Assembly (NCBI GenBank): GCA_017470985.1
Contig: JAFUXA010000006.1
Span: forward strand, 1-64,000
Length of the DNA: 64,000 nt
Direction of reading: 5' to 3'
Source: Lachnospiraceae bacterium
GTDB taxonomy: Bacteria > Bacillota > Clostridia > Lachnospirales > Lachnospiraceae
A program made the translations under genes and the position numbers. The notes beneath the pieces were generated by a model. It did no database searches, had not been told where the DNA came from, and worked only from the letters and a program-made list of their open reading frames with translations. How positions within the stretch are numbered: position 1 is the stretch's first letter; the number at the start of each line of letters is the position of its first letter. Shown piece by piece: positions 24,777-47,383 of this stretch.

Positions 24777-24920
24777 CACTCGCAGACACAACATGGCTTT
24801 TAAAGGAACATTGTGAGCCCCGGCACTTGACGAGCAAGCACAAGCGCGGCGAGTCTAGTACCGCTGGTGCGAGCAAGTAGCGGAAGCGATCCTGTAAAGC
24901 CATCGTTGTAGTCAAGAGTG
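24777..24920 (+). repeat. Dispersed ~142-bp structured element, copy C
   Basis: 144 bp bounded by CACTC at the left and GAGTG at the right. Its core is shared with copies A and B on the opposite strand: AAGGAACATTGTGAGCCCC, GGCACTTGACGAGCAAGC, then AGTACCGCTGGTGCGA and GTAGCGGAAGCG. The ends pair, with ATGGCTTT near the left end and AAAGCCAT near the right. It lies between the T-box terminator and pheS, antisense to pheS when oriented as the core. No reading frame or target-site duplication is evident. Confidence 0.85.
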
Positions 24921-24942: not shown

Positions 24943-25197
24943 AAAAAAACTCCGCCCCACAAGGGACGAAGTTACTCCGCGTTACCACCCAAATTCCAGA
25001 TTTCTCTGGCACTCGTACGCTTAACGTGCGCTACCCGTTGCCGACTACTATCATTTCACCGACACAGCTCCTGCGTGAAATTCATCTTGTGATCTTACTT
25101 AAAAGGGCTTACAGCCAGTGACCCTCTCTCTCTTTTAGTGTCTTCACAACCTACTTATCGCATTCACAGCTTTTATCTTATTCAATTAATTCTATTT
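24943..25197 (-). ncRNA. T-box leader of pheST
   Basis: On the minus strand the T-box sequence TGGGTGGTAACGCGG is present (24976-24990). It is followed by a terminator stem formed by AACTTCGTCCC and GGGGCGGAGTT and then seven T. Upstream lie a Stem I region starting near AGAGAGAGGGTCACTGG, and a TTC triplet in GAATTTCACG that could be the phenylalanine specifier. Uncharged tRNA-Phe would stabilise the antiterminator and allow pheST expression. The 5' end is set from the predicted promoter and is approximate. Confidence 0.93.
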
Positions 25198-25288: not shown

Positions 25289-25303
25289 AAGAGGCCCCCT
25301 CTT
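25289..25303 (-). terminator. Terminator after the SpoIID-like gene
   Basis: A short stem AAGAGG/CCTCTT with a 3-base loop is followed on the minus strand by TTGGTTTG. It overlaps the stop codon. The T run is weak. Confidence 0.4.
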
Positions 25304-26732
25304 AATAGTTCCAAACCTTGGAATTGCTATAGAAATACATCAGAATCGACTCATAATCCATCCCCTGAGTCGCCAACATCTTGGCTCCATTTTGACTCAT
25401 TCCACAACCGTGCCCATATCCACCGCCATAAATTATTATATTTCCTCCAGCCTCATCCATAGAGATGATAGCAGAAGGCAATATACTTGCAGATATTTCA
25501 CTTCCATCATTTAAATTAATATTTCTACTTGCAGCCCCAAGAACAGTTCTGATATTCAGCTGTCCCAGAACCACAATCTCTCCTGCGTCAAATGTAAATG
25601 TCATTTTGGTAACAGCACCTGTCACAGCTCGCTCGCTTATGGATATTTTCTGCAATGCTCCCACACTCTTATTATTTGATACCAAAGTATCTAAAAAGTC
25701 TGTTGTACATACCACGTTTTCCGGACTCTCAGACAGCTTTATCAACTCAGATACAATAACATTTCTAGCACCAGTCTTGTCTATAGATGTATTCCATCGA
25801 TAATATTTAGCATCTGTCTCATAGGCATTACTATCCCGGCCTCGTATATATTCATTGAAGTCAAAGCCACTGTATATATCAGAATCATCCACGCCCTCGT
25901 CCTTCAGACCTACAAAGACACCTCTAAGCACGCGGTTGTCCATATCATCTCCCATAATCTTACCGTCCTGTGTGATTCCACAGGATGTGGAGAAATACAA
26001 AGCATCAATTGGACGGTTATCAGACTTGTTCACAATAATCTTGCCGGATGTAGCTTCCACAGCAGAATTGGTCACCGTTGTACCATTGCTCTGGTTATAT
26101 ACCTGAAAAGCAACTGTATCGTCCATCTGCCCCTGAACTTCCGGATAAGCATATTTATTACTGTGTTTATAAGCATAAGTTCTGGCGCACACAGCCTGAG
26201 CCTTGAGAGCTTCGTCACCGTACTCTTCCGGCATCTCACTTGGCACCACCCGTTTGAGATAGTCCTCAATATCAAGTTCATTTACAACTACAATACCCTC
26301 AGGCATATTCCACAGCTCAATCTTATTAGGATACGGATTGGATTCCTGACCCGTCTCATCACCTAAAATAATTCCAGCTGAAGCAATACCATTTACCTCA
26401 CCACTATCTAAACTTATAACCTGTCCTTCGGTAAATGATTCTAAATTATAGGTATCATAATAATCCCCCGCCTGGTTATAGATATCTATCTCATTTCTGT
26501 ATATATCCCCATCGTAATCCATAATCACGATACGCATAGTTGTAGTATAATGTTCCTCAGTCTCCACGGATTTAACTTTCTTCTCCTGAGTCTGAGTTTC
26601 CAACTGACTTCCACCAATTAATACCAGAAATATAATCGTAAGAATCGCCAGACCCATAATAAGGCTGGCGGCAAATAATAATAATTGTTTTTTCTTTTTC
26701 TTCGTCACTTTTTTAAATCTAATCTTTTCCAT
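25302..26732 (-). CDS. SpoIID/LytB-domain protein
   Basis: 476 residues from the ATG at 26732. An upstream in-frame ATG at 26843 lies inside the 6S RNA region and is not credible. A basic start (KKVTKKKKKQ) and one membrane helix (LLLFAASLIMGLAILTIIFL) anchor the protein outside the cell. The SpoIID core contains EDYLKRVVPSEMPEEYG and EALKAQAVCARTYAYKHS, then a C-terminal GGGYGHGCGMSQNGA motif ending with ILMYFYSN. SpoIID is a lytic transglycosylase that trims glycan strands during engulfment; LytB-type relatives modify autolysins. No Shine-Dalgarno sequence precedes the start, which is only a few bases after the probable end of 6S RNA. Sporulation cannot be inferred from this gene alone. Confidence 0.85.
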   Translation of the reverse strand: MEKIRFKKVTKKKKKQLLLFAASLIMGLAILTIIFLVLIGGSQLETQTQEKKVKSVETEEHYTTTMRIVIMDYDGDIYRNEIDIYNQAGDYYDTYNLESFTEGQVISLDSGEVNGIASAGIILGDETGQESNPYPNKIELWNMPEGIVVVNELDIEDYLKRVVPSEMPEEYGDEALKAQAVCARTYAYKHSNKYAYPEVQGQMDDTVAFQVYNQSNGTTVTNSAVEATSGKIIVNKSDNRPIDALYFSTSCGITQDGKIMGDDMDNRVLRGVFVGLKDEGVDDSDIYSGFDFNEYIRGRDSNAYETDAKYYRWNTSIDKTGARNVIVSELIKLSESPENVVCTTDFLDTLVSNNKSVGALQKISISERAVTGAVTKMTFTFDAGEIVVLGQLNIRTVLGAASRNINLNDGSEISASILPSAIISMDEAGGNIIIYGGGYGHGCGMSQNGAKMLATQGMDYESILMYFYSNSKVWNY

Positions 26733-26739
26733 AATAAAA

Positions 26740-26921
26740 AATATGCCCAAAATGCCGGGCCCAGTATTTTGACTCCTAGCAAAGCTAGGTGGGTAACCGC
26801 AATCATAACTTCTGCCGTCCTCTGCGCAATGAAGGCTTGACATCCATTAGACAATAATAGGAATCCCGTTTAAAGTAAATGTAGGTTCAAAATTACTAGG
26901 TTGAATCGTGCATTTCAGGTT
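26740..26921 (-). ncRNA. ssrS: Probable 6S RNA
   Basis: About 180 nt on the minus strand, starting just after a strong promoter. The ends pair over ten bases (CCTGAAATGC with GCATTTTGGG). An inner stem joins AGTAATTTTGA with TCAAAATACT, followed by CCTA/TAGG pairing. The middle then opens into a large asymmetric region, giving the rod-with-bubble shape of 6S RNA. The 3' segment GGTTACCCACCTAGC and AGGAGTCAAAA resembles clostridial 6S as I remember it, and a U-rich tract follows. 6S RNA binds the housekeeping RNA polymerase. I cannot run a covariance model, so boundaries and identity are probable, not certain. Confidence 0.7.
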
Positions 26922-26927
26922 ACATAT

Positions 26928-46857: not shown

Positions 46858-46999
46858 CACTCTCGGACACATATAACTTTTCCGGAACGCTTCCGCTACG
46901 TATTCGCACCAGCGGTACTAAATTCGCTGCGCATAAGCTTGCTCATTAAGTGCCGGGGCTCATAATGTTCCTTGAAAAGATATATGTGTCCTACGAGTG
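46858..46999 (-). repeat. Dispersed ~142-bp structured element, copy A
   Basis: 142 bp bounded by CACTC and GAGTG. On the minus strand it reads GGAACATTATGAGCCCCGG, CACTTAATGAGCAAGC, AGTACCGCTGGTGCGA and GTAGCGGAAGCGTTCC. The core is identical to copy B over about 100 bp. The ends pair through GGACACATATA and its near-complement. An internal stem CCGCT/AGCGG is present. Confidence 0.9.
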
Positions 47000-47008
47000 A
47001 AATTACAT

Positions 47009-47037
47009 AATGATTCATATATAGTATGTGAATCATT
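47009..47037. other. Hairpin between element copies A and B
   Basis: A 12-bp stem AATGATTCATAT/ATGTGAATCATT (one G-T pair) encloses five bases. It separates the two 142-bp repeats. Confidence 0.6.
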
Positions 47038-47039
47038 GA

Positions 47040-47181
47040 CACTCTCGGGCACACATGACTTTTCCGGAACGCTTCCGCTACGTATTCGCACCAGCGGTAC
47101 TAAATTCGCTGCGCATAAGCTTGCTCATTAAGTGCCGGGGCTCATAATGTTCCTTGAAAAGTCATATGTGTCCTGCGAGTG
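47040..47181 (-). repeat. Dispersed ~142-bp structured element, copy B
   Basis: 142 bp. Its core is identical to copy A, and its start lies 182 bp from that of copy A. The terminal arms differ from copy A but pair within the copy: ATGACTTTTC on the left arm and GAAAAGTCAT on the right. Confidence 0.9.
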
Positions 47182-47211
47182 AATGCACATTTTGATAATT
47201 AACAGTTACGA

Positions 47212-47316
47212 GCATCGAGTTTAGTGCTTGTAGACGCAGGCGTGTATTCTCAAGGTTCACATATAGTGAACCGGAGAATGCCGCCGAGAGATTCTGCAAA
47301 GCACTTAACGAGATGC
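47212..47316. repeat. Second structured element (long imperfect hairpin)
   Basis: Outer arms GCATCGAGTTTAGTGCTT and AAAGCACTTAACGAGATGC pair over about 18 bases. Inside are GGCGTGTATTCTC with GAGAATGCCGCC. The apex is a perfect hairpin GGTTCAC/GTGAACC with loop ATATA. The motif GCACTTAACGAG recalls GGCACTTRACGAG of the 142-bp element. It is probably a related family. One copy is in the window. Confidence 0.65.
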
Positions 47317-47383
47317 GACATCATAAAATCAAACTAGAACACAAATATAAAAGAATTATACCGCATATCCGGCAATATAACAA

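What the first reader, a model, noticed from the sequence alone, without database searches (positions are those of the whole stretch)
24777..24920. Three copies of a conserved ~142-bp structured element, one inside the pheST leader
Copies at 24777-24920, 46858-46999 and 47040-47181 share a core (GGAACATT.TGAGCCCC, GGCACTT.A.GAGCAAGC, AGTACCGCTGGTGCGA, GTAGCGGAAGCG), and all have CACTC/GAGTG ends. The terminal arms differ between copies but stay complementary within each: ATGGCTTT with AAAGCCAT in copy C, ATGACTTTTC with GAAAAGTCAT in copy B, and an imperfect equivalent in copy A. Such covariation points to selection on RNA or DNA folding, as in a non-coding RNA or a non-autonomous hairpin element. 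No transposase is in the window. I cannot match it to a known family.
Basis: seen in the sequence. Interest (0 to 1): 0.75.

Follow-up and report, generated by a model that had tools for sequence, protein, structure and literature searches.

The report
Widespread gut-bacterial palindromic repeat, unlisted
The three copies belong to a large, apparently undescribed family of hairpin-shaped DNA repeats scattered between genes in many Lachnospiraceae, with a conserved three-way-junction head on arms whose sequence keeps changing while still matching; what reads the head is unknown.

Summary
The window's genome holds 20 copies. A covariance model finds the element in 156 of 397 Lachnospiraceae genomes and at least 150 copies in one 3.3-Mb genome. 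Rfam has no match at the element even at E<=5. Each copy has long arms, a three-way junction, a P2 stem with U.U and usually tandem G.A mismatches, and a GNRA mini-hairpin; 26 of 34 pairs show double changes. Two layers separate. In outer arms G.T and A.C mismatches are about equally common (41:34), unlike terminator hairpins of the same genomes (20:3): pairing is kept without regard to strand, as by DNA template switching. In inner arm plus P2, G.T outnumbers A.C 30:2: the head folds as one particular strand, RNA or ssDNA. Orthologous copies keep the head while arms are rewritten. Close neighbours are mostly head-to-head (19 of 23, none convergent); in G073 the doublet is a ~600-bp dispersed unit. 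Best reading: a REPIN-like non-autonomous mobile doublet. Y1/RAYT transposases are not associated. The enzyme is unknown; an RNA role stays open.

The parts
24777..24920 (+). Copy A of the element (E1), antisense to the pheST transcript, between the T-box leader and pheS
   Evidence: CM match G000:C7:24779-24912 +, 118.5 bits
46858..47000 (-). Copy B of the element, sense to pflA, about 30 bp before its start codon
   Evidence: CM 136.5 bits
47039..47182 (-). Copy C of the element, tandem to B; outer arms, three-way junction, P2 and GNRA hairpin
   Evidence: CM 135.1 bits
47001..47038 (.). B-C spacer, itself a palindrome (47009-47021 / 47025-47037) with a compensated double change between G000 and G002
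47205..47330 (+). E2: a second repeat that looks like a circularly permuted version of the same fold (P2 helix at the open end, arm closed by a loop); four further, partial matches in G000, one of them beside an E1 copy at C9
24717..24744 (-). Small hairpin CTAG-CTCGGC-AGCCCAAC-GCCGAG-CGG: probable deletion remnant of another E1 copy, which is full-length at this place in G002 (L032)
   Evidence: compared by eye; the MAFFT alignment is poor here
24959..25176 (-). T-box leader (RF00230) upstream of pheST; neighbour, not part of the element

Best explanation
This is a dispersed, non-autonomous palindromic repeat of Lachnospiraceae chromosomes that works like a REPIN/BIME-type mobile doublet. SHOWN: copies (E1) that lie close together are mostly head-to-head, left ends facing across a spacer; in genome G073 this doublet is a ~600-bp unit with common ends at 11 sites; in other genomes many copies are single. 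SHOWN: the head (inner arm, P2 with U.U and usually tandem G.A, GNRA mini-hairpin) is strongly conserved, and its pairing tolerates G.T but hardly A.C on one strand, so it is constrained as a fold of that strand. SHOWN: the long outer arms change sequence but keep pairing with no clear strand preference. INFERRED: the folded head, as ssDNA hairpin (for example on the lagging strand) or as transcript, is the recognition site of an unidentified enzyme that moves or resolves the unit; arm complementarity is renewed by replication template switching between the arms (quasi-palindrome correction), which would explain many double and few single changes. INFERRED: single copies are remains of doublets, and copies decay by deletion, leaving small hairpins. 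Preservation of the head at orthologous places suggests that copies are also kept by the host, or that the enzyme keeps acting on them.
For: Family size and spread. Fold and covariation. By hand from the full two-genome list (55 hits): 5 -+, 1 ++, 1 --, 0 +-. By hand from further loci: 8 -+, 1 ++, 0 +-. Five more G018 loci that one search showed to hold two opposite copies are all -+. Unit: 10 further near-full-length copies at 77-86% identity with common ends. Arms: 41:34, 37:31 with a stricter core match, against 20:3 in 55 terminator-like hairpins, Fisher p 0.006 (without G018, 35:24, p 0.019). Head: 30:2 against 43:37 for outer arms in the same alignment, p 2.5e-5; one count per genome, pair and type 26:2 against 37:25, p 0.001; on the alignment not fitted to a model 7:0 against 19:17. 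Core mismatches are held: U.U in 103 of 103 distinct rows. Orthologues: core identity 84-100% in 17 comparisons; in the 8 comparisons with G001 (not independent of each other), 34 double and 10 single pair changes. Template switching as a source of compensated stems is in print (PMC8794818, abstract and opening text read).
Against: No transposase, recombinase or RT has been tied to the element; PF01797 is found in 13 of 20 element-bearing and 15 of 20 element-free genomes. No clean empty site was found; the presence/absence differences seen are deletions. The direct repeat at the unit ends (AAGTATACATTT) has much the same sequence at many sites, so it is not a plain target-site duplication. 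Head conservation at orthologous places for a long time is more than a selfish element needs. One head position goes against the strand rule: a C.A mismatch in P2 in 60 of 103 distinct rows, T-A in 37. The outer arms counted per genome lean slightly to G.T (37:25). A3 was fitted to the model. Between G000 and G002, double and single changes are equal (3 and 3 in 9 comparisons). In one search, 20 of 111 pattern hits overlap an ORF of 80 aa or more; that set includes loose pattern hits that are not elements.
Confidence: 0.5

Rival explanations
1. A structured RNA: the head acts as a transcript (binding a protein or processed by an RNase), and the head-to-head spacer is a divergent promoter region that drives both RNAs outward.
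For: G.T over A.C 30:2 in the head; GNRA loop and tandem G.A; no convergent close pairs; orthologous preservation; in the window a terminator-like site (47421-47383) and a promoter-like site (47383-47355) on the - strand precede E2, C, B and pflA.
Against: The outer arms behave nearly strand-neutrally. Copies sit in either orientation to flanking genes ('> E> >' 50, '< E> <' 33, convergent 18, divergent 10 of 111 pattern hits, some of them not elements). Two promoter-like sites were found in the window stretch where 1.9 are expected by chance, and no terminator-like site follows copy B there.
Confidence: 0.25
2. A host-maintained DNA site: a cruciform or lagging-strand hairpin serving chromosome upkeep (gyrase, nucleoid protein, replication or recombination), spread long ago and now kept by selection.
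For: Mostly intergenic (91 of 111 pattern hits overlap no ORF of 80 aa or more); core preserved at orthologous loci while flanks and arms diverge; a core subtype seen once per genome among the fetched copies (L012, L027, L193) is preserved at 90-92 of 92 positions in three genomes.
Against: Not detected in 241 of 397 family genomes (strict filters). Copy number runs from 3 to at least 150 in ten genomes. No clear replichore orientation in G203 (counted by hand, and the GC skew of that assembly switches four times). Discrete dispersed units in G073.
Confidence: 0.2
3. Ordinary decayed MITE of a known IS, whose arms covary only through template-switch mutation and whose core identity reflects recent spread.
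For: Dispersed unit with common ends.
Against: In G018 the cores are near-identical while arms between constant boxes differ from copy to copy. If copies simply decayed under template switching, core mismatches should turn into pairs: the U.U never does (0 of 103 distinct rows) and the tandem G.A becomes two standard pairs in 2 of 103. No viral-contig match to exact core patterns; plasmids and phages give nothing better than E 2 with a G018 copy, and plasmids E 5 with a G943 copy. No Y1 association. Against this: no IS database was searched.
Confidence: 0.05

Closest known systems
REPINs (REP doublets, RAYT-mobilised)
   Same: Palindromic modules, extragenic, inverted doublets around a spacer as the spreading unit (PMC3116915, abstract read); TAG-like foot at the 5' base of the hairpin in many copies (by eye)
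   Different: REPs are 20-40 bp simple hairpins (PMC3733652, abstract in listing); here ~140 nt with a three-way junction, non-canonical P2 and variable arms; no association with Y1 transposases
BIMEs
   Same: Palindromes in alternating orientation between genes (PMC2817692, abstract in listing)
   Different: Close pairs only head-to-head or tandem, none convergent; far larger module
MITEs
   Same: Non-coding, dispersed, inverted ends, defined unit of ~600 bp in G073
   Different: No plain target duplication, no parent IS found, arms rewritten while core is kept
Rfam structured RNAs
   Same: Covariation, GNRA loop, tandem G.A
   Different: No family matches the element at E<=5 or at the copies in 20 further loci at E<=1

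Membership tests
REPIN / REP-RAYT | Inverted doublets over-represented as a unit | tested here: met
   19 of 23 close neighbours -+, 0 +-; discrete doublet unit in G073
REPIN / REP-RAYT | 20-40 bp simple palindromic module | tested here: not met
   ~140-nt three-way junction element
REPIN / REP-RAYT | Accompanying RAYT (Y1 tyrosine transposase) | tested here: not met
   PF01797 in 13 of 20 element-bearing and 15 of 20 element-free genomes; 7 element-bearing genomes with at least 8 copies have none
MITE | Discrete non-coding unit at dispersed sites | tested here: met
   11 units incl. query in G073
MITE | Terminal inverted repeats flanked by target-site duplication | tested here: inconclusive
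   direct repeat AAGTATACATTT at both ends, similar at many sites; 13 of 13 identical in one unit, diverged in others
MITE | Parent IS with the same ends | tested here: inconclusive
   one stretched unit in G073 read: no transposase seen; no IS database or genome-wide parent search
Rfam RNA family | Match above gathering score | tested here: not met
   G943 module
Structured RNA (any) | G.U preferred over A.C in stems of one strand | tested here: inconclusive
   met in the head (30:2), not in the outer arms (43:37)
Structured RNA (any) | Expressed transcript | not testable with these tools
   no RNA-seq available

The most novel reading that the evidence does not exclude
A new class of bacterial mobile palindrome whose 22-nt P2 module is a portable single-strand recognition site. 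It is used in the E1 element, in a circularly permuted form in E2, and, with the exact module, in a repeat of different architecture in another Clostridia family (G943). It is read by an unidentified enzyme or RNA-binding protein, while arm identity is continually rewritten by template switching, so that one element carries both a structure-selected part and a mutation-maintained part.
Probability: 0.3. Interest if true: 0.85.

Novelty: new variant of a known kind. Interest (0 to 1): 0.62.

Why it matters
About 39% of the sampled Lachnospiraceae genomes carry a repeat that Rfam lacks, in one genome at 150 or more copies; it sits in leaders of central genes (pheST, pflA). It also gives a natural test of how compensatory change arises: within one element the head looks selected on one strand, and the arms look mutation-maintained on both. 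That makes the open question whether covariation proves a functional RNA directly testable.

Tried and rejected
T-box, L10 leader or freshwater-2 identity: their matches lie beside the element, the last two far below gathering score. Y1/RAYT partner: rejected as a general partner; my notebook entry 5 miscounted this as 12/20 and 16/20, the right figures are 13/20 and 15/20. Arms copied from the insertion target, suggested by L031 and L034: dropped, because in G018 constant boxes lie outside the variable arms. Replichore orientation: no clear bias. Right end pointing to the nearer gene: 35 to 24 of 59 single copies, p 0.19. ORFs between five wide head-to-head pairs: different from pair to pair, by eye. 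Stretched unit in G073:C3: a 244-aa ORF that I recall as MazF/PemK-like, not a transposase. Viral contigs (0 hits of exact core patterns); plasmids and phages (nothing better than E 2, queries from G018 and G943 only). Papers: ten searches listed no description of it; core letters occur in none (65). Looked into: PMC1803023, PMC3116915 and PMC8794818 (abstracts); PMC3733652, PMC13155455, PMC8632094, PMC6429828 and PMC8040213 (word searches and passages). The 3161 candidate RNAs of PMC8040213 could contain it; its tables were not readable here. 'Lost' pairs (0-37 per comparison) are inflated by alternative minimum-energy folds and were not used. Of the 19 matches, two cross-matches between tandem copies were dropped. 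The arm counts come from a loose core pattern over all loci then held, viral-contig stretches included, so a few arms may not be elements.

Full report
WHAT IS THERE. The three copies stand at the given coordinates, the first on the + strand, the other two on the - strand. Copy A lies antisense in the pheST leader between a T-box and pheS; B and C lie in tandem between pflB and pflA. All fold better than shuffles on either strand. Rfam 15 has no match at the element at E<=5, nor at the copies in 20 further loci at E<=1.

SIZE OF THE FAMILY. Blastn with copy C gives 12 places in the own genome G000, itself included, and hits in 5 of 61 genomes, G000 among them. A 25-copy alignment, with RNAalifold structure, gave covariance model R1. 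R1 finds 20 copies in G000; 156 of 397 Lachnospiraceae genomes, with at most 8 candidates scored per genome and strict filters; 28 of 295 genomes of the order, all 28 in the family; 8 of 291 genomes of the class, seven in the family; these counts include G000. In ten genomes scored more deeply the counts run from 3 to 150; in G018 all 150 scored candidates matched, of 1224 first-look candidates. By equal contig lengths, G002 is the water-deer rumen MAG RGIG9274 and G001 is RUI070.

ANATOMY. In the orientation of the head: outer arms P1 (about 25-30 bp, differing widely between copies), inner arm, P2 = GGCACUUAAUGAGC...GCGAAUUUAGUACC with a U.U and tandem G.A mismatches, a variable apical stem, and on the 3' side a GNRA mini-hairpin (GCGRRAGC), together a three-way junction. 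The U.U stands in 103 of 103 distinct rows of the larger alignment, the tandem G.A in 75 (two rows have two standard pairs instead; nine lack the columns). On the unfitted alignment 26 of 34 pairs have double changes; 90.2% of cells pair against 69.7% shuffled and 34-43% when slid.

TWO LAYERS OF CONSTRAINT. In outer arms, isolated mismatches are G.T 41, A.C 34, other 33 among 168 arms; with a stricter core match 37, 31 and 28 among 153. In 55 terminator-like hairpins of the same genomes, which must fold as RNA, they are 20, 3 and 2; Fisher p 0.006, or 0.019 without G018, where the arms give 35:24. So arm pairing is kept with little or no strand preference. In a 115-copy alignment (103 distinct rows) the outer arms give 43:37, but inner arm plus P2 give 30:2; p 2.5e-5, or 0.001 with one count per genome, pair and type (37:25 against 26:2); the unfitted alignment gives 19:17 and 7:0. 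P3 gives 66:2, but 54 of these are one column pair that may not be a true pair. Thus the head is constrained as a fold of one strand, RNA or ssDNA. Against this, one P2 position carries a C.A mismatch in 60 of 103 distinct rows. Template switching between hairpin arms in replication is a described source of compensated stems (PMC8794818, abstract read); it would treat both strands alike, as seen in the arms, and would be expected to turn the core mismatches into pairs if these were not held by selection (inference).

EVOLUTION IN PLACE. Orthologous copies in G000, G001 and G002 were found through flanks and compared (17 comparisons). Core identity runs from 76 of 91 to 93 of 93. In the 8 comparisons with G001, which are not independent, 34 pairs changed on both sides and 10 on one side; in the 9 between G000 and G002, 3 and 3. 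Loss is by deletion: G002 has lost most of copy A, and G000 keeps only a small hairpin where G002 has another full copy; at C10, G000 keeps only the end of a second copy (by eye). B and C share the same apical variant in each genome, so tandem copies seem to evolve in concert.

THE DOUBLET. Counted by hand: 5 -+, 1 ++, 1 --, 0 +- in the full list for G203 and G416; 8 -+, 1 ++, 0 +- in further loci; five more G018 loci with two opposite copies are all -+. Beyond 3 kb, convergent neighbours do occur (G203). In G073 the doublet is one unit: 10 further near-full-length copies of about 570-645 bp at 77-86% identity share both ends with the query, with conserved asymmetric left flanks. Both ends carry AAGTATACATTT; since the sequence is similar at many sites it may be part of the unit or of its preferred target. 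Several ends abut terminator-like hairpins (by eye). Of 111 pattern hits with context, 91 overlap no ORF of 80 aa or more; the set includes loose hits that are not elements.

PARTNERS. PF01797 (Y1, RAYT, IS200) occurs in 13 of 20 element-bearing and 15 of 20 element-free genomes, so it is not the general partner. No exact core pattern on viral contigs and nothing better than E 2 on plasmids and phages, with queries from G018 and G943. No IS database was searched.

A PORTABLE MODULE. E2 (47205-47330) has the same P2 helix, but open at the other end, with the arm closed by a loop: a circular permutation. E1 and E2 form a ~260-bp block that is inverted in G001 relative to G000, at a contig end, and 95.8% identical there, against 78.2% in the flank. 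In G943, of another family of the class, an intergenic repeat carries the exact P2 module within a different chain of hairpins. The exact module pattern occurs in 5 of 391 Clostridia genomes, and its reversed control in none of the genomes listed.

VERDICT. The element is real, widespread and, in the searches named under Tried and rejected, undescribed. It works most like a REPIN-type mobile doublet but fails two REPIN tests (module size, RAYT), so it is not filed there. An RNA role for the head, or a host DNA function, remains open.

Noticed in passing
window 47205-47330; G000:C9:112268-112364: E2, a second repeat with a circularly permuted version of the same P2 helix; five matches in G000 including itself, the other four partial.
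   Followed up: partly
L212 10108-10367 and L214 19941-19682 (G000:C9, G001:C1 contig end): A 260-bp E1+E2 block stands inverted in G001 relative to G000 and G002 and is more similar than its flanks.
   Followed up: partly
L298-L307 (G943): Intergenic repeat chain of hairpins in another Clostridia family containing the exact P2 module; its 5' hairpin also seems to have copy-specific arms (by eye).
   Followed up: partly
window 26740-26924 (-): 6S RNA (RF00013) match overlapping the start of a SpoIID/LytB-like ORF, 25302-26843: the start of that ORF is doubtful.
   Followed up: no
G073 and several other loci, e.g. L072, L083, L090: A further outer stem (P0) flanks many copies and makes the palindromes much longer (by eye).
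   Followed up: no
L031 and L034 (G001): Direct duplicates of the left flank plus left arm lie upstream of the element, perhaps traces of template-switch or slippage events.
   Followed up: no
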